Shown here: piece by piece, positions 13,957 through 23,487 of the stretch
Layout: every line of letters starts with the position of its first letter
Position numbering within the stretch: the first letter of the stretch is position 1
Source: a virus
Virus record (IMG/VR): IMGVR_UViG_3300036768_000079
Span: 1-37,401 of that record
Length of the DNA stretch: 37,401 nt
Strand: one strand, 5' to 3'
The notes under the pieces: model-generated
Database searches by the model: none
Told to the model about the DNA's origin: nothing
Seen by the model: only the letters and a program-made list of their open reading frames with translations
Position numbers and translations under genes: made by a program

Positions 13957-14012
13957 TTGACGCTATTATTGCTTATTTAATAGCACTAATTGTAATTATT
14001 CTTAGGAGCTAA
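13953..14012 (+). CDS. Tiny membrane peptide
   Basis: 19 residues, MIDAIIAYLIALIVIILRS: almost entirely a single transmembrane helix with a basic end. It overlaps the previous stop (ATGA) and contains the AGGAG that serves the next ORF. Expression is inferred from this arrangement. Confidence 0.4.
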   Translation: MIDAIIAYLIALIVIILRS

Positions 14013-14014
14013 CT

Positions 14015-14074
14015 ATGCTAACCATGCTTATTATTATCGCAATTCTGCTATTTCTTATATTGCTTAATATGTAA
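14015..14074 (+). CDS. Tiny membrane peptide
   Basis: 19 residues, MLTMLIIIAILLFLILLNM: one hydrophobic helix. TTAGGAGCTAACT provides a strong ribosome-binding site at good spacing. It is the last ORF before the terminator at 14122. The function could be membrane modulation or toxin-like; nothing in the sequence decides. Confidence 0.42.
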   Translation: MLTMLIIIAILLFLILLNM

Positions 14075-14121
14075 GCAATAAAATATAATAAGTTAACCCC
14101 TCGGTGGCTAATGCCACGTTA

Positions 14122-14157
14122 ACCGCTAGTGGATTATCCATTAGCGGTATTTTTTTT
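14122..14157 (+). terminator. Rho-independent terminator ending the first early segment
   Basis: ACCGCTAGTGG and CCATTAGCGGT form an 11-bp stem with one G-T pair and loop ATTAT, followed by eight T residues. A smaller hairpin (GTGGC, TAAT, GCCAC) lies just before. It stops rightward transcripts before they meet the convergent primase operon. The last codons of the convergent small gene overlap it. Confidence 0.85.
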
Positions 14158-14349
14158 CCTATGGGCTTCGCAAGCCTCCTGAGCGGTTTTTGCATCAGGA
14201 TATATACCAATAGTCATCCTGTTAGTTTGCGGCCCGTATAGGGCCATATAACGGCTTCTTGGATACTTAATTATTAAGTACGGTTCACAACGCATTGTTA
14301 TCTTGCCGGTTCGCTTAAATTCTAGCGGTTTAGAATTTATCATTTCCAT
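14134..14349 (-). CDS. Small protein at end of primase operon
   Basis: 71 residues (MEMINSKPLEFKRTGKITMR at the start). The start overlaps the primase stop, indicating coupled translation. The middle (PYLIIKYPRSRYMALYG, then GIYPDAKTAQEACEAHRKK) looks like a small alpha/beta domain resembling short phage DNA-associated proteins, but I do not recognise a family. The C-terminus overlaps the opposing terminator. Confidence 0.6.
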   Translation of the reverse strand: MEMINSKPLEFKRTGKITMRCEPYLIIKYPRSRYMALYGPQTNRMTIGIYPDAKTAQEACEAHRKKNTANG

Positions 14350-16894
14350 ATTTCCACTCCACTACTCCAAGTTTCACAATATCAATCCCAAGAAAATACC
14401 GAGTTGTCGATGTTTTATATCGCTGAAATCCGCGCGCTTCCATCCGCTGACTAAAACGTTTTTGAGACACTACGCCCTCGCCGGCTTTTTCTACGTATGA
14501 CTTATAAGAATTATATGCTTCACTAGCACCGACTTTTAATGATGGGCTTACGGTGCAGCATTCCTCTATCCAGCGGCCAAGTGTATCTTCATCACCTAAA
14601 TAATCCATTGTTGCCGCTTTAACCGATTCAGGCCGCTGTAAGCCGATTTTTTGCCATTCAAGACATCCCTCTATAGCCCATTGCAAAATACCAGGCCATT
14701 CCTCTTTAAGAAGCTCTGGAAGATTATAAATTCTCTCTGCTTCCGGTATTGATTCAGGAAATTCTACGAAATGCATGCGGCGGAATATTTCCTCGCCGGT
14801 AGACTTGAAAGCTGGTCGGAAATTTCCGTTAACCACTAGCTTAAATTCTGGCCTAAATGTAAATTGTTTTTCATAAAGCCGTCTTGCTGACACAGTATCC
14901 CTGCCGGTAATAAGTTTAAGCATGGATTCATTCCAGCGTGCACCTTCATCCGGTTCCGATGTTCGCACCATTCGTGCACCGGCCAGACTTGCCAATTCTT
15001 CTGTATGCCTTTCTATCCTGCTCTCCATTAGCATTTCTATCTTAGCAGTTGCACAATATCCACCAATGTCTGATTTCCCGAGCATATCTCCCAGGCAATC
15101 TATGAATTTTGATTTTCCAGAATTACCAGCACCGTGAACAAAAAGAAACGCCTCCTCTCTGCAATCACCCGTTAGGATATATCCTGCCCAGCGCTGATAA
15201 TACTTTCGCATTTCTGGATCGCCTCTGGTGCATCGGTCAATAACTTTATCCCAATGCGGCGTTGGCATAGGCTTTGGCGATACGGAAGTCTGTCGAGTAA
15301 TATAATGTTCCCTAACTGGAGTCATCATCTCTCCGGTGCGAAGGTCTATAGTCCCGTCTGGCGTGCCAAGAAGAAACGGATCAGAATCGAAATCTTCTGG
15401 AAGCATTGCTATTGTTGGCAATGTAGATGCACGTTTAAGCACTCTTGCCGACTTATCTACTCCACCAAGACTACGCCTATCCTTATATGATAATTGCCCA
15501 GCTTCACGCCACGCAGCCGCGCTATTCAGATAGTCAGATACGATATTGGTAACTGATCTTTTACGGTCAATAGCCCATCGTGATCCATCCCAGTGCATCC
15601 AGCACTCCCACCCATGGCAGTAAAGCCAATCCTTACCAGCGCTTGCTGCCCATACTTTTGCTAGGTGGTCATCGCTAAATTCGATCAATTCTGGCGATAT
15701 TGATTCAGTTATTCTTGTATGCCTTTTCGGTTTTTTATTATTAACCGCTGGAACATCTACTGTCTGTTGCGGAACGATATTTATAACCGCAGGTATATTC
15801 GGTTCAGGTTCTAGTGGCGGTAGTTCATAGATTGAAGAATCTTCATTGAAATTACGCACGTTATTAGCCTCTGAATTTCTGCTTGGTTGCTCTAATAACA
15901 TTGTTTTTTTTTGAGCATCATCACTTTGTTTTTCAATCTCTCTGCTTGTCAGTGATGTGATTCTTGGTTTCGCCCATTCCTGCAATTGCGCTGTTGTCCA
16001 TCCAGCCTCAAGTGCATCTGCCAAGTCCCATTTATCCGGTTGGTCAGACGTATCTATAATTCTCACCTTGCACCCGATGGCAAGTAAAAATCCTGCAACT
16101 CCAAGCATTGCATCATGTCCAACGCCTGATTTATCTGCATCCGGTATTAGCAGGACATCGCGGTTTGCAAGTGGCGACCAATCGACGGCTTTAATCCCAT
16201 TTGCCCCGCCAGGCCAGGCAATACAAACCATTGCTGGAAGTAATTTTCTCGCTGCATCAGCGGCTTTCTCTCCTTCGCATATAGCCACTTTCGCATCTGG
16301 TCTTGCTGATAGTAAATCAAGCCCATACAGTGGCCGCTTTCCTGCTGTCCATGTTTTAGGTTTCCATTCAGCTTTGGCATTCTCTGAGTATGAGCCGAAT
16401 GTATAGGGGCGATAGGATTTTCCACCATCAGGCTTTTCATATCGTGCAACATATCCCAAGCATCGGCCTTGCTCATCGTTGTATCTCCATATTGCAACAG
16501 GCTTGCCGTAATCCTTTGAGGTCATGTCAGGCATTTCCTCTGGTGCCACTTGGTGAATCCACTCGTTCATTGCTGGGTTGATAGGTTCTGCTGCTGTCAT
16601 TTTCTTTCCCCCGTGAAATCCATTGGCTTTTAGTCGATTGATTGCTGCTGATTCATCGCATCTTTCAAGCACCATGATGGCATCTATTACTGTACCGCCA
16701 GCACCGCAGCTTTTGCAGTGCCAGCGCATTATGCCGTCGCTCTTGCTTTCATATACCTGCATGGATGGATTCTTTTCAGTATGCGCGATGCATAACCCAT
16801 CCCACTCCGCGCCGCGTTTTTTTAGCGCGACACCATAGCTTTCTAGCAATACTACAAGATTAGTATTGCGCTTTAGTTCGTCTAGGTCGTTCAT
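14330..16894 (-). CDS. Primase-helicase (CHC2 zinc, Toprim, D5-type SF3 helicase)
   Basis: 854 residues, a full-length phage/plasmid replicative fusion. The zinc-binding primase motif uses Cys35, His38, Cys60 and Cys63. The Toprim domain shows CEGEKAAD (about 207) and IPDADKSG (about 249). A linker rich in Pro and Asn follows, then the D5/P4-type region (LLGTPDGTIDLRTGE) and an SF3 helicase with Walker A GAGNSGKS (about 585) and the downstream LVVNGNFRPAF sensor region. The C-terminus may hold a winged helix. It should lay primers and unwind DNA for the host polymerase. Second gene of a leftward operon behind the HTH gene. Confidence 0.9.
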   Translation of the reverse strand: MNDLDELKRNTNLVVLLESYGVALKKRGAEWDGLCIAHTEKNPSMQVYESKSDGIMRWHCKSCGAGGTVIDAIMVLERCDESAAINRLKANGFHGGKKMTAAEPINPAMNEWIHQVAPEEMPDMTSKDYGKPVAIWRYNDEQGRCLGYVARYEKPDGGKSYRPYTFGSYSENAKAEWKPKTWTAGKRPLYGLDLLSARPDAKVAICEGEKAADAARKLLPAMVCIAWPGGANGIKAVDWSPLANRDVLLIPDADKSGVGHDAMLGVAGFLLAIGCKVRIIDTSDQPDKWDLADALEAGWTTAQLQEWAKPRITSLTSREIEKQSDDAQKKTMLLEQPSRNSEANNVRNFNEDSSIYELPPLEPEPNIPAVINIVPQQTVDVPAVNNKKPKRHTRITESISPELIEFSDDHLAKVWAASAGKDWLYCHGWECWMHWDGSRWAIDRKRSVTNIVSDYLNSAAAWREAGQLSYKDRRSLGGVDKSARVLKRASTLPTIAMLPEDFDSDPFLLGTPDGTIDLRTGEMMTPVREHYITRQTSVSPKPMPTPHWDKVIDRCTRGDPEMRKYYQRWAGYILTGDCREEAFLFVHGAGNSGKSKFIDCLGDMLGKSDIGGYCATAKIEMLMESRIERHTEELASLAGARMVRTSEPDEGARWNESMLKLITGRDTVSARRLYEKQFTFRPEFKLVVNGNFRPAFKSTGEEIFRRMHFVEFPESIPEAERIYNLPELLKEEWPGILQWAIEGCLEWQKIGLQRPESVKAATMDYLGDEDTLGRWIEECCTVSPSLKVGASEAYNSYKSYVEKAGEGVVSQKRFSQRMEARGFQRYKTSTTRYFLGIDIVKLGVVEWKYGNDKF

Positions 16895-16903
16895 TTCGAT
16901 GAC

Positions 16904-17152
16904 CTATCTTTTCGCATTTGATAGCTTCTCTTTCGATAGCTTCTCTTTCGATAGCTTCGCCTTCGATGGCTTCGCTTTTAGTGGCTTCGCTACAAGTTTT
17001 CCATTAGTCACCGCTTCAATAATTCGCTGCGCCTTATATGGTATTGCACCCTTGTTTTCCCAATGTCTTATAGCTGGTTCCGTATAACCAATGGCCAGCG
17101 CGATAGCTAATCGGTTTCCATCATAATAATCAAGTAGTTGTTTAAGTGTCAT
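16904..17152 (-). CDS. Cro/YdaS-like HTH regulator with lysine-repeat tail
   Basis: 82 residues. Residues 1-50 match short Cro-like repressors (NRLAIALAIGYTEPAIRHWE, then NKGAIPYKAQRI). The C-terminal 27 residues are five-residue repeats rich in Lys (KAKLSKEKLSKEKLS), giving a strongly basic tail that could strengthen DNA binding. AAAGGAGAAAGTT precedes the ATG. First gene of the leftward primase operon, facing the rightward promoter at 17225, so control of that divergent region is likely. Confidence 0.7.
   Translation of the reverse strand: MTLKQLLDYYDGNRLAIALAIGYTEPAIRHWENKGAIPYKAQRIIEAVTNGKLVAKPLKAKPSKAKLSKEKLSKEKLSNAKR
16920..16994 (-). repeat. 15-bp tandem repeats encoding the lysine-rich tail
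   Basis: Units of the form GATAGCTTCTCTTTC begin at 16920, 16935, 16950, 16965 and 16980, the last two diverged. They keep the reading frame and extend the protein by five residues per copy, so copy number may vary between isolates. Confidence 0.75.
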
Positions 17153-17224
17153 AACTTTCTCCTTTTGTGAATATTGCGAATTGTGGCATACTGAAAATTA
17201 TTTTGCAAGAGGTTCAAAAAAATG

Positions 17225-17252
17225 TTGACAAAGGAAAAAAAATATGGATAAT
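17225..17252 (+). promoter_or_regulatory. Second rightward early promoter
   Basis: TTGACA (17225-17230), 16-bp purine-rich spacer, GATAAT (17247-17252) within TATGGATAAT. The spacer AAGGAAAAAAAATATGG resembles that of the promoter at 11363. It would transcribe the 60-residue gene, the 36-bp array and the recombination genes. A stray CGAGTC lies just downstream, at 17254. Confidence 0.7.
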
Positions 17253-17287
17253 TCGAGTCCCCAATAACCAAAGTGAGGATAAATTAT

Positions 17288-17470
17288 ATGAAAACGCGAA
17301 TGTATAAGGTAACAGAAAAAGCAACGGGCAATGTGAGACTTGTCGATGCATTCAATGCAGACAAGGCTATTGGATTCGTTGCAAGTGACAAATACGAGTG
17401 CAAGGTAGCCAAAGCTGCTGATATTGCCCAGCTTGTTGGCAGTGGTGTTAAGGTAGAGCAGGCAAGGTAA
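17288..17470 (+). CDS. Small conserved-type phage protein
   Basis: 60 residues from the ATG at 17288 (MKTRMYKVTEKATGNVRLVD), with GTGAGGATAAATTAT before it. A GTG 15 bases upstream is less likely because it overlaps that site. The pattern (ATGxVRLVDAxNxxxA ... VASDKYECKVA ... LVGSGVKVEQA) resembles small phage proteins of unknown role found in early operons. It is the first gene from the 17225 promoter and ends just before the repeat array. Confidence 0.65.
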   Translation: MKTRMYKVTEKATGNVRLVDAFNADKAIGFVASDKYECKVAKAADIAQLVGSGVKVEQAR

Positions 17471-17476
17471 ATGATT

Positions 17477-17872
17477 TTAGCCAAAAGAACAGAGAGAAAC
17501 ACATGCGTTTAGCGAGTCACTAGGGCTGAGAGAACCACTAATGCGGAACGAGTCATGGCGCAGGAGAGTACCATTCCGGTAGATCGAGTCATTGCAGAGG
17601 AGATAACCAGAACTGAGGAGCGAGCCGAAATGACAGAGAGTACCAGGGGCGTAAGCGAGTCAAGCGGGCATAGAGCACCATTTCGTGCGAGCGAGTCACA
17701 TGTAGGGATAGCACCAAGGGGAATGAACGAGTCATGGTGTGGGAGAGTACCAGTGTCAGGGAACGAGTCACTAAGAAATAGAGCACCAGTTGAGATGAAC
17801 GAGTCACGAGGATGGAGAGTACCAGATTAGGTTAGCGAGTCACGATGAATGAGAGAACCAAGTCCGGCGAGC
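17477..17872 (+). repeat. 36-bp two-block repeat array with variable segments (10 units plus 1 decayed)
   Basis: Units start at 17513, 17549, 17585, 17621, 17656, 17692, 17728, 17764, 17800 and 17836. Each is CGAGTCAY, 7 variable bases, GAGAGTACCA (variants with A or C for the T, or TAGAGCACCA), then 11 variable bases; unit 4 is one base shorter. A decayed unit (17477-17512) keeps GAGAGAAACA in register. No two variable segments are alike. The blocks are conserved at all codon positions and the 35-bp unit shifts frame, so conservation is at DNA or RNA level. It lies 5' of the IS110-like gene and downstream of the 17225 promoter, so it is probably transcribed. It lacks the long repeats of CRISPR. 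Confidence 0.85.
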
Positions 17873-17905
17873 GTTATATCAATTAACCAACGAAAGGAAC
17901 ATTAA

Positions 17906-18718
17906 ATGGAACTGAACACAATCGAAAGAATCGGTAGGGACATCATTAAATCTGCTGAGACACTATCTGATGATGAGGCAAGATACCTAGTCGACGCCTA
18001 CTATATTATGCAGGATGACCGGAAGCGGGCATATAACCAATGCCGCGCGGTTGAGCAAAAAGCAGATGAATCACATTCTGCCAGCGATAACAAAATTATC
18101 CAGTGGCTTGCTGCACAATCTGAGATTCTTGAGAATCAAATCAAGCGTGCGCTGGACAAATATACTGAATCTCACCCGATGGGGTCATGGATGCGAAAAA
18201 TTGTTGGCATTGGCCCTGTTATATCTGCTGGACTTCTTGCCCATATTGATATTGAGAAAGCGCCTACAGTTGGGCATATATGGCGGTATGCTGGCCTTGA
18301 TCCTACAGTTAAATGGGAAAAGGGACAAAGGCGCCCGTGGAATGCTACTCTGAAAACATTGTGCTGGAAGGCTGGTCAATCGTTTATGAAATTTTCAGGT
18401 AGGTATGATTGCTACTACGGACAGGTATATCGCAAGCGTAAAGAATTCGAGATCGAGCGCAATGACCGTGGCGATAACAAGGAAGTAGCATCGGAGATTA
18501 TCAAGAAAGTTGGCAAAACGACAGAAGCCTATAAGCATTTGATGGAAGGGAAACTTCCGCCAGGCCAAATAGATGCACGTGCCCGCAGGTACGCCGTAAA
18601 GCTGTTTTTATCTCACATGCATGGTGAATGGTATTTCCGCCACTTCGGAGTCGAAGCGCCGCTTCCCTATCCGATTGCACTTCTTGGGCACGCTCACTTC
18701 ATTGATAGACCTAGATAA
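17906..18718 (+). CDS. IS110-type transposase C-terminal-domain protein lacking the RuvC-like domain
   Basis: 270 residues, with AAAGGAACATTAA before the ATG. Residues 1-95 are helical and probably coiled coil. Residues about 98-170 match the Transposase_20 (IS116/IS110/IS902) domain: VGIGPVISAGLLAHID (helix-hairpin-helix) and IWRYAGLDP (AGL at 129-131). Full IS110 recombinases have an N-terminal DEDD RuvC-like domain, coiled coil, then this domain with a catalytic serine. Here the DEDD part is absent and no serine occurs between residues 129 and 158, where it is expected. The remainder is basic (YRKRKEFEIERNDRG). No IS ends are visible. A domesticated nucleic-acid-binding protein is likely, possibly serving the adjacent array. 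Confidence 0.75.
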   Translation: MELNTIERIGRDIIKSAETLSDDEARYLVDAYYIMQDDRKRAYNQCRAVEQKADESHSASDNKIIQWLAAQSEILENQIKRALDKYTESHPMGSWMRKIVGIGPVISAGLLAHIDIEKAPTVGHIWRYAGLDPTVKWEKGQRRPWNATLKTLCWKAGQSFMKFSGRYDCYYGQVYRKRKEFEIERNDRGDNKEVASEIIKKVGKTTEAYKHLMEGKLPPGQIDARARRYAVKLFLSHMHGEWYFRHFGVEAPLPYPIALLGHAHFIDRPR

Positions 18719-18752
18719 TTTATAAAAATGATTATTAAAGGAGACAATACGA

Positions 18753-19532
18753 ATGAACATATTACGTATTAAAGCCGACGAGTATCACGCAATTGAAGCT
18801 GTATCTAATTCTTTGATTAGTAAGATACTCAAATCACCAGCACATGCCCGTGCCTATCTTGATAAACAGCCAGTGGCGACTAAGGCAATGGAATTCGGGA
18901 CTGCATTTCATGTAGCTATTCTTGAGCCAAAGAAATTCGCAGAGCAATATGTAGTATTCAACGGAGATAGGAGGACTAAGGAAGGGAAGGCCACTTATGA
19001 GGAATTAACATGTTCAGGAAAACAAATTCTTTCAACAGAAGATATGGAAGATATACATGGTATGCAGTTATCTGTATTCTCGCACAATGCAGCTAAGAAA
19101 TTGATAGAAGAAGGACATGCCGAGTTATCGGTAACGTGGGATGATTACGACACTATGGTGAAGTGCAAGTGCCGTCCAGACTGGTGGAATGGTGACGTTT
19201 TGGTCGATATTAAAACCACTGATGACGCATCGCCGGAAGGCTTCATGCGCGCGATTGTGAAGTATGGCTATCACAGGCAAGCAGCATGGTATTTACGAGG
19301 AACGGAAGCAAAGAAATTTATATTTATTGCTGTAGAGAAACAAGATCCATACGCTGTTGGCGTGTATGAACTTGACGCGCTATCGCTATCACAAGGCAGT
19401 TACGAATGCGATAGAGCTTTGCAGATATGGGCAAATGCAAATGCTACTGGAGAGTTTCGAGCCTATTCAGATGAATGTGAGTTGCTTTCCTTACCCGACT
19501 GGAAATTTGATGAACAGGAGATTACTGTATGA
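18753..19532 (+). CDS. RecE-like PD-(D/E)XK exonuclease
   Basis: 259 residues with AAAGGAGACAATACG before the ATG. The N-terminal region (YHAIEAVSNSLISKILKSPA, then FGTAFHVAILEP) and the nuclease core (CRPDWWNGDVLVDIKTT, about 139-156, then YHRQAAWYLRG) match phage exonuclease VIII / DUF3799-type proteins. These degrade one strand from double-stranded ends to start recombination. Catalytic Asp and Lys (DIKT) are present. Its stop overlaps the start of the next gene (ATGA), the usual place for an annealing partner. Confidence 0.82.
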   Translation: MNILRIKADEYHAIEAVSNSLISKILKSPAHARAYLDKQPVATKAMEFGTAFHVAILEPKKFAEQYVVFNGDRRTKEGKATYEELTCSGKQILSTEDMEDIHGMQLSVFSHNAAKKLIEEGHAELSVTWDDYDTMVKCKCRPDWWNGDVLVDIKTTDDASPEGFMRAIVKYGYHRQAAWYLRGTEAKKFIFIAVEKQDPYAVGVYELDALSLSQGSYECDRALQIWANANATGEFRAYSDECELLSLPDWKFDEQEITV

Positions 19533-20281
19533 ACGAAAAAACTATTGAATCTTTGCGAGATACTATCACGCCTAAGTCAGATCAACTAAATGCTGATGAC
19601 CTTCTAGCAGGACCGATTATTGTCAAAATCATGGCAGTCAAGCGAGGGTCAAATGCAGATCAACCTATTGACATTATCATTGACGGTGGAAGACAGCCAT
19701 ATAAGCCATGCAAATCCATGAGGAGAGTAATGATTGCTGCATGGGGCGACGATGGGCGTGAATGGGTTGGTCGCAGTATGAAACTCTACTGTGATCCAAA
19801 TGTAAAGTTTGGTGGCGTAAAGGTCGGCGGAATCCGTATCAGCCACATGAGCGGTATTGACACCAGATTATCTGTAATGTTGACTACGACACGCAGCAAG
19901 CGCAGCGAATACATCGTTGAGCCATTGCAGACACCAACCCCTATGCCAGCAAAGGTTAAGCAAGCAGTATCCGCTATTCAGAAACCAAAAAATACTGCTG
20001 CAAATGATACGATTACTGGTGATCCAATGGAGGGCGATTTAACTGGTATTGGCGGAGACTATCCAATAACAGATAGTGTCAAGAAAAAAATTCTTGATGG
20101 ATTCGCTGCCATTGGTTTTGACCAAACTTCACTTGAAATTGAATACGGCAAACCTATGAGTGAATGGATGGAGTCTGATATTCCAGAACTACGTGAAGTC
20201 CTTAAGGCCAAGAAGATTGAGCAAGCGCAGCAAGCGCAGCAAGCGCAGGCTGAACAGTATGACAATCAAGGTGAAATTTAA
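19529..20281 (+). CDS. Putative recombination partner of the exonuclease
   Basis: 250 residues, starting MNEKTIESLRDTITPKSDQL and overlapping the exonuclease stop. The first 130 residues look like a conserved phage domain (GPIIVKIMAVKRGSNADQPI; MRRVMIAAWGDDGREWVGRS). The C-terminus ends in a Gln/Ala repeat (QAQQAQQAQAEQ), probably a flexible tail. I do not recognise RecT or Erf motifs, so an annealing role is inferred from the gene pair alone. Confidence 0.6.
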   Translation: MNEKTIESLRDTITPKSDQLNADDLLAGPIIVKIMAVKRGSNADQPIDIIIDGGRQPYKPCKSMRRVMIAAWGDDGREWVGRSMKLYCDPNVKFGGVKVGGIRISHMSGIDTRLSVMLTTTRSKRSEYIVEPLQTPTPMPAKVKQAVSAIQKPKNTAANDTITGDPMEGDLTGIGGDYPITDSVKKKILDGFAAIGFDQTSLEIEYGKPMSEWMESDIPELREVLKAKKIEQAQQAQQAQAEQYDNQGEI

Positions 20282-20296
20282 CTAAAGGAGAAAACC

Positions 20297-20611
20297 ATGT
20301 TTGATTTAAGAATAGAACCGTCGATCAACCCACCTTCGCTAACCGAAGCGGAGGAACGTTCTATAGAAAGACTCCAAGCCAAGAAAGAGGCTTGGATTGA
20401 AGAAGCGGTATCAGACCGCATGTGCGATCCAGACTGGGTTATTGATGCTATTGTTTCTCAAGTATCTGATAATCCTTATACTCAGAAATGCTTGGCAGAC
20501 CTGATTATGGGGCATGGGGATAAAAGTATCCTTATTGGAAATTTGAAACTCGACTGCATGGATTGGATCCGTGCACAAGCAAAGAAAGAAGCAGAAAGGG
20601 GGATGGTATGA
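20297..20611 (+). CDS. Small protein in recombination operon
   Basis: 104 residues (MFDLRIEPSINPPSLTEAEE at the start), acidic and helical, with AAAGGAGAAAACC before the ATG. No catalytic motif. It follows the recombination genes and overlaps the start of a tiny membrane peptide. Function unknown. Confidence 0.55.
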   Translation: MFDLRIEPSINPPSLTEAEERSIERLQAKKEAWIEEAVSDRMCDPDWVIDAIVSQVSDNPYTQKCLADLIMGHGDKSILIGNLKLDCMDWIRAQAKKEAERGMV

Positions 20612-20676
20612 CAGACAAAATTGTGTTTTTTGTTGTAGTAATCGGCTATGCTGTTTCTTTGATTTTTGGAGTATGA
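20608..20676 (+). CDS. Tiny membrane peptide
   Basis: 22 residues, MTDKIVFFVVVIGYAVSLIF plus two, a single hydrophobic helix. It overlaps the preceding stop (ATGA) and is preceded by AAGGGGGATGGT. Another of the tiny membrane ORFs in this genome; expression inferred from coupling. Confidence 0.42.
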   Translation: MTDKIVFFVVVIGYAVSLIFGV

Positions 20677-20679
20677 ACC

Positions 20680-20850
20680 ATGAAAACCTACGGAACTTAT
20701 ACACCAAAACAATTCTATGACCCTAAATGCAACTGCGCACGCTGCGAAGAAGCCAGACGTGCTGAGCAGTTGGAAGCTGTTAAACGTGCGATAGAGGGGT
20801 TTGCCAACAGCGAAGATAAGAATAAAGAATTTAAGTTTCTAAGGAGCTAA
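20680..20850 (+). CDS. Small cysteine-motif protein
   Basis: 56 residues. Cys17, Cys19 and Cys22 (DPKCNCARC) suggest a partial metal-binding knuckle, followed by a charged helix. The start is three bases after the previous stop and the gene's last codons contain AAGGAG for the next gene, showing tight coupling. Function unknown. Confidence 0.5.
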   Translation: MKTYGTYTPKQFYDPKCNCARCEEARRAEQLEAVKRAIEGFANSEDKNKEFKFLRS

Positions 20851-20851
20851 C

Positions 20852-21196
20852 ATGGAACACAAGAAATTTGCCCCACAAAAATTAACAATGGACAAGATAG
20901 AAAAAATCATACAGATCGACCCGAGAACTGCGGAAGATATTTCTATTCGTCTTGGTGTATCTACAACTACTGTTAGGAACTTGCTTGGGAAACTTCGGAA
21001 GGAACGACGTGCGTACATATTAAAGTACAGAATCAGCAAGTACAACATGGCTGCTATATGGGCGGCAGGCGACCACGAAGATGCAAAAGTCCCGCCGAAT
21101 TGCAAGTGGGCAAATAAAAAGAAAGTGTCTGAGATGGTAGAGGAATTTGACTATAGGAAGCCCGTGAAGTGCTACGGGATATGGGGGTTGCAATAA
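20852..21196 (+). CDS. Winged-helix-type DNA-binding protein
   Basis: 114 residues. Residues about 22-55 form a helix-turn-helix (PRTAEDISIRLGVSTTTVRN, followed by LLGKLRKERRAYI). AAGGAGCTAAC precedes the ATG. The C-terminus is basic and aromatic. A likely phage transcriptional regulator, possibly for middle or late genes; the target cannot be read from sequence. Confidence 0.65.
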   Translation: MEHKKFAPQKLTMDKIEKIIQIDPRTAEDISIRLGVSTTTVRNLLGKLRKERRAYILKYRISKYNMAAIWAAGDHEDAKVPPNCKWANKKKVSEMVEEFDYRKPVKCYGIWGLQ

Positions 21197-21201
21197 GCTA
21201 C

Positions 21202-21255
21202 ATGCTTATAGAAAAAACCTTTGATGAAAGATATCTACGAAGGTTATTGCGATGA
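21202..21255 (+). CDS. Possible 17-residue leader peptide
   Basis: MLIEKTFDERYLRRLLR, stop overlapping the next start (GATGAG). There is no strong ribosome-binding site. Its only support is the overlap with the next start. Confidence 0.25.
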   Translation: MLIEKTFDERYLRRLLR

Positions 21256-21731
21256 GCAGAAGCGGTTACAAAGAAGATAACGATGACCCGTTGGCGTATG
21301 GACGCTGGCGGCATGCTGTGAATCGCTCAATTAAAGGTAGGCAAGGACAGGCAATGCTTCGTGAACTGGTGGAAGCACTGGACGCCATGCCTGACAAACG
21401 CCTTTATTCTGGCAGCTTTGCCACAGATGAAGGCAAGTTTTGTGCTCTCGGCGTATTGGGTAAGAAACGCGGCATAAAGATGGACGACCTTGTTGACGAG
21501 TACAACTGCGACATCGAAAATGTTGCTCAGCGCTTCGGTATTGCACCAGCGATGGCGGCAGAAATTATGTACATAAACGATGAATATGCTGTAGATGAGT
21601 GGAAGTTGGTGGACGTGGATGGTAGCAACACCAAGAGCGTTAGAGTTTACAACGATAACCATCCACAAGAGCGTTGGCAGTATGTTCGTGAATGGGCAGT
21701 GGCTAACCTAAAAACTCCTATCGTGAAATAA
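21252..21731 (+). CDS. Conserved-type phage protein, unknown function
   Basis: 159 residues. The recognisable part is KFCALGVLGKKRGIKMDDL with VAQRFGIAPAMAAEIMYIND downstream, a pattern I associate with phage proteins of unknown role. The C-terminus (ERWQYVREWAV) is aromatic. No catalytic residues stand out. Plus-strand early operon. Confidence 0.6.
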   Translation: MSRSGYKEDNDDPLAYGRWRHAVNRSIKGRQGQAMLRELVEALDAMPDKRLYSGSFATDEGKFCALGVLGKKRGIKMDDLVDEYNCDIENVAQRFGIAPAMAAEIMYINDEYAVDEWKLVDVDGSNTKSVRVYNDNHPQERWQYVREWAVANLKTPIVK

Positions 21732-21755
21732 CAACCAAACAACCAGAAAGGAATA

Positions 21756-21977
21756 ATGATGACCGATATACTAGAAGCAACACACGTAGCACCTAAAACA
21801 ACAACGGAGGTTTTTGTGGTGATGAACCGCTACGGCGACGATTACTGGAGCGCCTGCACGACATGGAAGACGCTAGAAGACGCGCAGCGATCAGTGGGCT
21901 TGAATACATCCATCCAAGCGTGGAAGATCGTGAAGGTTTCCGGCCTGCCGGTGAATATACATGCTGGCGAAGCATAG
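21756..21977 (+). CDS. Small early protein, unknown function
   Basis: 73 residues (starts at 21756 or the adjacent ATG 21759) with AAAGGAATA upstream. The pattern FVVMNRYGDDYWSACTTW suggests a small alpha/beta protein. No recognised family; co-directional with the early operon. Confidence 0.5.
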   Translation: MMTDILEATHVAPKTTTEVFVVMNRYGDDYWSACTTWKTLEDAQRSVGLNTSIQAWKIVKVSGLPVNIHAGEA

Positions 21978-22018
21978 ACACTAAACGTAAATTAAACACT
22001 ACTATAAAGGAAATGTAA

Positions 22019-22162
22019 ATGAAATATATTGAAGTAGCTCTAACATTAGTTAACCTAGCTCTAATAATAGTTTGCATTTTCCAACTATACGATCAATTTA
22101 TAACAATAAGTAAATTGGTGGAAAGATTAAGAAACTGGGAAATGAAAAGAAATAGCTGGTAA
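22019..22162 (+). CDS. Small single-pass membrane protein
   Basis: 47 residues. An N-terminal helix (YIEVALTLVNLALIIVCIF) spans the membrane and a basic cytoplasmic tail follows (RLRNWEMKRNSW). AAAGGAAATGTAA precedes the ATG. Unknown role. Confidence 0.5.
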   Translation: MKYIEVALTLVNLALIIVCIFQLYDQFITISKLVERLRNWEMKRNSW

Positions 22163-22187
22163 ACATTAACATTAACTAGATCAAACC

Positions 22188-22685
22188 ATGAAAACTAAAA
22201 AAACATTAAGAGACATTACAGCAGAAAACTATAAAGCAGAAAAGGCATGGGCGATTGCCTATGGCGTTAAAGTAAGAGACGATCTTGAGACAGTTCATGA
22301 AAAGCGTACACACACCAAGCAGATGAGCGACAACGACCGTGAGGATGCAGTATTGCGTGAAGTAGGGCAACTATTAGCAGTGCATCCCAAGATACTATTC
22401 GCAGTTAGGCAAAATTCAGGCATGGCCTACAACGACTCCAGAGCGCCGATTTATTTCTACAGATGGCTGCGAAGCGAAGTTAAAATGCGTATCTCTGACT
22501 TTTGGGGAATGCTTACCGATGGGCGTATGTTTGCAATTGAATGCAAGAATAGAGCATGGAATAAACCATCAGGTGCGCGTGAATTAGAACAGAAGGCGTT
22601 TATTGATACTGTTAAACATGCAGGTGGTGTAGCAGGATTTGTAACAAGCGCGGAACAAGCACAAAGGATAATTGATAATGGCTGA
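22188..22685 (+). CDS. VRR-NUC domain nuclease
   Basis: 165 residues. The second half matches phage VRR-NUC (PD-(D/E)XK) proteins: RQNSGMAYND (about 72), MRISDFWGMLTDGRMFAIEC (about 105-123) with the acidic residue and Lys124, then FIDTVKHAGGVAGFVTS. This family includes Holliday-junction or replication-fork nucleases and may trim recombination intermediates. The ribosome-binding site is weak. The end overlaps the methyltransferase start. Confidence 0.75.
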   Translation: MKTKKTLRDITAENYKAEKAWAIAYGVKVRDDLETVHEKRTHTKQMSDNDREDAVLREVGQLLAVHPKILFAVRQNSGMAYNDSRAPIYFYRWLRSEVKMRISDFWGMLTDGRMFAIECKNRAWNKPSGARELEQKAFIDTVKHAGGVAGFVTSAEQAQRIIDNG

Positions 22686-23487
22686 GAAAGTGATTATCGG
22701 TGGTTGCGAAATATGGCATGGGGATTGTAGGGAAGTGTTGCCTATATTGCCACAAGTCGACCTAATTTTCACTTCACCGCCTTACAACATGAACCTGCGA
22801 ATTAGTGGTGGAGAATACTGTTCTCGCCAAATTGTTGATGAATTTTCTACGAAGTACGAAGGCTATGCTGATAACCTGCCAATTGATGACTATGAGGCAC
22901 TGCTTCGGGAAACGATAGCCATGTCTTTGAATGTTTCACCTTTGGTTTTTTGGAACATCCAGTTTTTAACTGGAAACAAGCGACCAATGCTTAAGCTAAT
23001 TGGCGAGTACGCAGACTATATTAAAGAATTTATTGTTTGGGACAAGATGGCTGCTCAACCTGCAATGGCAGATGGTGTTATGAATAGCCGGTGGGAAGCT
23101 ATACTTGTTTTCGATAGGAGGAATGCAATAACTCGTAGGTTTGATGCTGCATTTAAGCGAGGAACACTAGACAACCTTTGGCAAATAGGCAAAGAGAGGT
23201 CTGTTTCAGATTCTCATGGGGCAACATTCCCGCTCGCGCTACCGTCAAAAGCAATTGATGCTTTTACTTTCAATGGGCAAACCGTGTGTGATCCATTTCT
23301 AGGAACTGGAACTACTGGCGTTGCCTGCGTAAATCTTGGCCGTAAGTTTATTGGCATTGAACGTGAGCGCAAATACTTTGACATCGCATGCCACAGAATC
23401 GAGCAAGCATACGCACAGCGTCGTTTATTTGATGACGAAAAACTCGCTACTGGCAACACGCCAGTTCAGACAGAAATTATTACCTAA
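22678..23487 (+). CDS. DNA methyltransferase (N4-cytosine/N6-adenine, beta class)
   Basis: 269 residues from the ATG at 22678; a TTG six bases upstream is less likely. Motif IV TSPPYN at 32-37 comes before the AdoMet-binding motif DPFLGTGTTGVAC (about 205), the beta-class order. TSPPYN fits N4-cytosine or N6-adenine methylation. It could shield phage DNA from host restriction, complementing ArdC. No cognate restriction enzyme is present. The gene overlaps the nuclease stop. Target sequence cannot be predicted. Confidence 0.85.
   Translation: MAEKVIIGGCEIWHGDCREVLPILPQVDLIFTSPPYNMNLRISGGEYCSRQIVDEFSTKYEGYADNLPIDDYEALLRETIAMSLNVSPLVFWNIQFLTGNKRPMLKLIGEYADYIKEFIVWDKMAAQPAMADGVMNSRWEAILVFDRRNAITRRFDAAFKRGTLDNLWQIGKERSVSDSHGATFPLALPSKAIDAFTFNGQTVCDPFLGTGTTGVACVNLGRKFIGIERERKYFDIACHRIEQAYAQRRLFDDEKLATGNTPVQTEIIT

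What the first reader, a model, noticed from the sequence alone, without database searches (positions are those of the whole stretch)
17477..17872. 36-bp two-block array with unit-specific 7-nt and 11-nt segments, 5' of an IS110-like gene
Seen: ten units on a 36-bp period (one of 35) plus a decayed leading unit. Each has CGAGTCAY, 7 variable bases, GAGAGTACCA, then 11 variable bases. The blocks keep every codon position, the 35-bp unit shifts frame, and no two variable segments match, so selection acts on DNA or RNA, not protein. Established: IS110-family recombinases use a bridge RNA with two guide loops, encoded 5' of the gene in the IS110 group. Inference: this may be an array of short guide-like RNAs with two variable guides each, read by the downstream IS110-like protein. 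Alternatives are an RNA sponge for a host factor or a phased protein-binding array. I know of no described system with this layout.
Basis: partly seen in the sequence, partly recalled or inferred. Interest (0 to 1): 0.93.

Follow-up and report, generated by a model that had tools for sequence, protein, structure and literature searches.

The report
Phage TIGR-Tas guide-RNA array (TasA type)
The repeats are a phage-borne array of eleven two-part guide RNAs beside the gene of the protein that should carry them, a member of the TIGR-Tas family of RNA-guided DNA-binding systems published in 2025; the array is real, the kind is known, and what it targets is not known.

Summary
The array is real. 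Window 17474-17873 holds eleven 36-nt units (one degenerate at the 5' end, one a base short), against 0.11 hits expected by chance. The adjacent gene (17906-18718) is not an IS110 recombinase. It passes NCBI's TIGR-Tas model (E 7e-68), its closest solved structures are TasH and TasR, and its model matches TasH at Z 19.6. The geometry equals that of Salicola phage CGphi29, the experimentally studied TasH locus. It lacks the HNH and RuvC domains, so it is TasA. Added here: an array lies beside the gene in all 28 first-round relatives; edge and loop repeats covary across 71 arrays; retained spacers change more slowly than synonymous sites of tas; no target above chance was found in 3 Mb of phage DNA. 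The natural target stays unknown.

The parts
17225..17252 (+). Promoter-like site TTGACA-16-GATAAT, divergent from a P22-Cro-like regulator gene (16904-17152, minus strand)
   Evidence: Consensus scan, 11 of 12 matches; Pfam PF14549 for the regulator. Similar site counts occur in shuffles, so only suggestive.
17288..17470 (+). Small ORF (60 aa from ATG), no known family, between the putative promoter and the array
17474..17509 (+). Degenerate leading tigRNA unit: partial edge ATTTTAGCCA, spacer A AAAGAACA, loop GAGAGAAACA, spacer B CATGCGTT
   Evidence: Sequence in register 36 bp before the first clean unit; [quoted passage not shown]
17510..17868 (+). Ten tigRNA units: edge GARCGAGTCA (10), spacer A (8), loop GAGAGNACCA (10), spacer B (8); the unit starting at 17618 is 35 bp
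   Evidence: same 10+8+10+8 geometry in 71 arrays with 1595 units and in Salicola phage CGphi29
17869..17873 (+). 3'-truncated edge repeat GAGCG closing the array
   Evidence: tail; matches the described array ending
17906..18718 (+). tasA: 270-aa solo Nop-domain Tas protein, no HNH or RuvC nuclease domain; expected to dimerise and bind tigRNA
   Evidence: NCBIfam NF052498 TIGR_Tas_endo 228.8 bits, E 7e-68, cut-off 100; phmmer vs PDB TasH E 2.6e-13, TasR 6e-13; AF2 model pLDDT 85.7 aligned to TasH Z 19.6 and TasR Z 17.5

Best explanation
This is a TIGR-Tas locus of the TasA type. The array is transcribed, probably with tasA from one early promoter (inferred). The precursor is cut within the edge repeats into 36-nt tigRNAs (shown for relatives, inferred here). 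A TasA dimer holds each tigRNA through the edge repeat on one protomer and the loop repeat on the other. Spacers A and B pair with opposite strands of one double-stranded DNA site, about 16 bp, with no adjacent motif needed (shown for TasR and TasH, inferred here). Because the protein lacks a nuclease, the likely outcome is sequence-specific binding and sharp bending of target DNA. That could block transcription or replication of a rival element or regulate a host or phage gene; the target is unknown.
For: NCBIfam TIGR_Tas model far above its cut-off. Best PDB sequence hits are TasH and TasR, before IS621. The predicted structure matches TasH Z 19.6 over 226 residues and TasR Z 17.5, with IS621 at 13.1 and unrelated chains at or below 7.0. 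tblastn finds Salicola phage CGphi29, the published TasH phage, whose array is edge 10, spacer 8, loop 10, spacer 8. All 28 relatives of the first protein search carry such arrays. Searching by array pattern alone gave 11 arrays, all in records with a Tas gene. Edge and loop repeats covary between loci: last base A/A 55, G/G 10, C/C 2, one mismatch; second base A/A 68, C/C 2, as expected if both bind the same site of a symmetric dimer. Among close relatives (tas nucleotide divergence about 0.02-0.13) retained spacers diverge mostly 0-18% where tas four-fold sites diverge about 4-38%.
Against: No expression, processing or binding data for this phage. No target found: no excess of self matches, and 1436 spacer pairs against 3.05 Mb of phage DNA gave 10 exact and 364 one-mismatch sites versus 7.6 and 334 for mispartnered spacers. 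The loop positions are looser than the edge, and one edge repeat is damaged (17618), so not every unit need be active.
Confidence: 0.96

Rival explanations
1. The array is an RNA sponge that titrates a host RNA-binding factor such as a post-transcriptional regulator; the variable segments are mere linkers.
For: Short conserved blocks on a fixed period resemble multi-site sponges (sequence). Covariation of the two blocks could arise with any symmetric protein.
Against: Arrays found by pattern alone always lie in a record with a Tas gene, and Tas proteins are known to bind such RNAs (PMC12045711). Linkers should drift, but retained spacers change more slowly than synonymous sites of tas.
Confidence: 0.02
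2. The array is a phased set of double-stranded DNA sites (iterons or operators) for a replication or regulatory protein.
For: It lies in an early regulatory region between a Cro-like gene and recombination genes.
Against: Box C-like and box D-like ends covary between the two blocks of one array and change together between loci, as Tas binding predicts. The array lies 3' of tas in most relatives and 5' in others, so no fixed origin or operator position.
Confidence: 0.015
3. It is an IS110-type element: the gene is a recombinase and the array a row of bridge RNAs.
For: Pfam Transposase_20 (E 1.4e-4); fold of the IS621 RNA-binding part (Z 13.1).
Against: IS110 model 28.3 bits against a cut-off of 140; no DEDD domain, since the model aligns to IS621 only from residue 125 on. 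Bridge RNAs are single two-stem RNAs, not 36-nt tandem units (PMC12045711).
Confidence: 0.005

Closest known systems
TIGR-TasH of Salicola phage CGphi29 (SpTIGR; PDB TasH entries 9w04, 9vzx, 21kl)
   Same: Phage locus, same 10+8+10+8 unit of 36 nt, edge AAGCGAGYCA similar to GARCGAGTCA, loop ending ACCA, Nop fold
   Different: TasH has an N-terminal HNH nuclease (residues 1 to about 63) that this protein lacks; 26-29% protein identity; its array is 3' of the gene, here 5'
TIGR-TasA (Flavonifractor plautii FpTasA and other solo-Nop Tas; PMC12045711)
   Same: Solo Nop protein with a dual-repeat array; FpTasA was shown to bind 36-nt RNAs
TIGR-TasR (PDB 9mty)
   Same: Nop fold, Z 17.5; two-spacer guides
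   Different: TasR has a RuvC nuclease, 9-nt spacers, and UG/CCA boxes where this array has GA and TCA/CCA
IS110 recombinases (IS621, ISCro4)
   Same: Shared RNA-binding domain, Z 13.1
   Different: No DEDD domain, no bridge RNA, guide array instead

Membership tests
TIGR-Tas | Nop-domain Tas protein | tested here: met
   NCBIfam NF052498 228.8 bits, cut-off 100; TasH Z 19.6, TasR Z 17.5; PDB phmmer TasH E 2.6e-13
TIGR-Tas | Array of two alternating 8-12-nt repeats separated by two short spacers, next to the tas gene | tested here: met
   10+8+10+8 units ending about 33 bp upstream of tasA
TIGR-Tas | Truncated edge repeats at both array ends (typical, not strictly defining) | tested here: met
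   TTAGCCA-like first edge within 17474-17483 and GAGCG at 17869-17873
[quoted passage not shown]
   71 related arrays: last base A/A 55, G/G 10, C/C 2, one discordant, three with an undecided loop base; base 2 A/A 68, C/C 2, one undecided
TIGR-Tas | Rho-independent terminator after the array (typical, not strictly defining) | tested here: not met
   No terminator-like site between array and tasA. The source says 'typically'; here the array is 5' of the gene, so read-through into tasA is expected. Not treated as a defining feature.
TIGR-Tas | Processing into 36-nt tigRNAs bound by Tas; RNA-guided binding of both DNA strands | not testable with these tools
   Needs RNA sequencing and biochemistry
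TIGR-TasA subtype | No nuclease domain fused to Nop | tested here: met
   Model residues 18-270 align to TasH 64-304, leaving no HNH counterpart; no nuclease family in Pfam
IS110 recombinase | DEDD catalytic domain and full-length IS110 model score | tested here: not met
   28.3 bits against 140; alignment to IS621 starts at residue 125

The most novel reading that the evidence does not exclude
A nuclease-free TIGR-TasA whose spacers are kept by selection because each guides the dimer to a stable DNA site outside these phages (host or rival element), making it a multiplex RNA-guided repressor or DNA-bending system of phages rather than a cutter.
Probability: 0.45. Interest if true: 0.65.

Novelty: new member of a known kind. 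Interest (0 to 1): 0.33.

Why it matters
TIGR-Tas systems are recent, and the role and natural targets of the nuclease-free TasA form are open (PMC12045711). This locus adds a compact phage example, and the comparison of 71 related arrays gives two usable facts: whole units are gained and lost between relatives, while retained spacers look constrained. That makes the target question testable in phages with known hosts.

Tried and rejected
Coding repeat: rejected, stops in all frames of relatives' arrays. Known RNA family: no Rfam match up to E 1. Known defence protein: no PADLOC match for TasA. Close sequenced phage: no megablast match for 14001-22500. Self-targeting: 0 exact and 2 one-mismatch self hits over 41 records, same as mispartnered controls. 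Targets in other phages: an apparent excess in the first set (103 against 84 +/- 10) did not hold in a second set (39 against 44 +/- 8) or in the pooled test. Codon-phase signal of spacer changes, which would point to coding targets: weak trend with 81 families (p about 0.05), not convincing with 130-168 families. The array pattern in cellular genomes gave only isolated single matches without an array detected.

Full report
What was checked. The window is a 37,401-bp IMG/VR virus record. Ten clean or nearly clean units start at 17510 with a 36-bp period, one being 35 bp. A loose pattern hits ten times in the window, all in the array, against 0.11 expected. A degenerate unit precedes them in register at 17474-17509, and a cut edge repeat follows at 17869-17873.

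Register. Column conservation shows four blocks: edge repeat GARCGAGTCA (10), spacer A (8), loop repeat GAGAGNACCA (10), spacer B (8). The 8+8 reading is confirmed by relatives, where exactly those columns are free.

The gene. NCBIfam has a model for the right family: TIGR_Tas, E 7e-68, 228.8 bits against a cut-off of 100, while the IS110 model gives 28.3 against 140. The best solved-structure sequences are TasH (E 2.6e-13) and TasR (6e-13), far ahead of IS621 (0.031). A structure predicted from 27 aligned relatives (pLDDT 85.7) matches TasH with Z 19.6 over 226 residues, TasR 17.5 and IS621 13.1; the next, unrelated, chains are at 7.0. The match starts at TasH residue 64, so the HNH nuclease has no counterpart. 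The protein is a solo Nop protein, TasA.

The literature. Faure et al. [quoted passage not shown] One of their loci is Salicola phage CGphi29 with 16 nt of spacer per unit. That phage is a tblastn hit of this window's protein, and its array has the same 10+8+10+8 geometry. They also report TasA proteins without nuclease, with unknown role.

Relatives. A first search of viral contigs with the protein gave 28 loci at 46-75% identity, all with the array beside the gene. Searching with the repeat pattern alone gave 11 arrays, all in records that encode a Tas, so the link holds in both directions. Two more protein searches gave 52 further loci; one gave a GAGTCA-type array in the scan (two with poor consensus), and several of the rest have arrays with other repeats. 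Over 71 arrays (1595 units) the ends of edge and loop repeats change together: final A with A, G with G, C with C, and GA with GA, GC with GC at the start. That is the covariation described by Faure et al. and is expected if both repeats bind identical sites of a dimer.

Evolution of the array. Among close relatives of the family (not of this exact array, which shares no spacer pair with any other), units keep their order but many are gained or lost whole. For pairs whose tas genes differ by up to about 13% in nucleotides, spacers of retained units diverge mostly 0-18%, generally well below the four-fold sites of tas (about 4-38%). More distant pairs share too few units to judge. Because units were matched by spacer similarity, the spacer figure is biased low to some degree. 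Changes fall less often in spacer positions 1-4 than 5-8 (61 against 112, p 1e-4; 172 against 237 with looser families, p 0.0015). Columns were treated as independent. Both facts suggest that the spacers are used.

Targets. From the published cut geometry I derived that a target strand reads A, a gap of 0-2, then the reverse complement of B (inference). With mispartnered spacers as control there is no excess in the phages' own records nor in 3.05 Mb of related phage DNA. An early excess was not reproduced. The host is unknown and was not searched, so targets in the host or in unrelated elements remain possible.

Setting. The array lies 33 bp upstream of tasA and downstream of a good promoter-like site at 17225-17252 that faces away from a P22-Cro-like gene; an exonuclease VIII-like gene follows tasA. 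No terminator-like site separates array and gene, so they are probably one early transcript (inferred).

Verdict. New member of a known kind. The open point is what a nuclease-free TasA and its constrained spacers do.

Noticed in passing
L104 17629-19176 (same contig as L041): A Tas protein of about 515 aa with roughly 135 extra residues inserted in the middle of the Nop domain; Pfam finds only Transposase_20.
   Followed up: partly
L027, L028, L029 (Tas genes from 4001): Tas relatives with cysteine-rich inserts (perhaps a zinc ribbon) after the position equal to about residue 114 of the window protein; L028 and L029 have several separate arrays.
   Followed up: partly
L040 8821-9597, minus strand: A Tas reading frame broken by three TGA and one TAA codons beside long arrays with 43 units; decay or frameshifts.
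   Followed up: no
Spacer columns over the related arrays: In orthologous units, spacer positions 1-4 vary less than 5-8 (61 against 112 variable columns, p 1e-4), a possible seed next to box C.
   Followed up: partly
window:17906-18718: NCBIfam names this family 'RNA-guided endonuclease' although this protein lacks a nuclease domain; automatic annotation will mislabel TasA.
   Followed up: no
window:12315-13124 and 22672-23487: An ArdC-N antirestriction-like protein and an N4/N6 DNA methyltransferase, likely counter-restriction genes of the phage.
   Followed up: no
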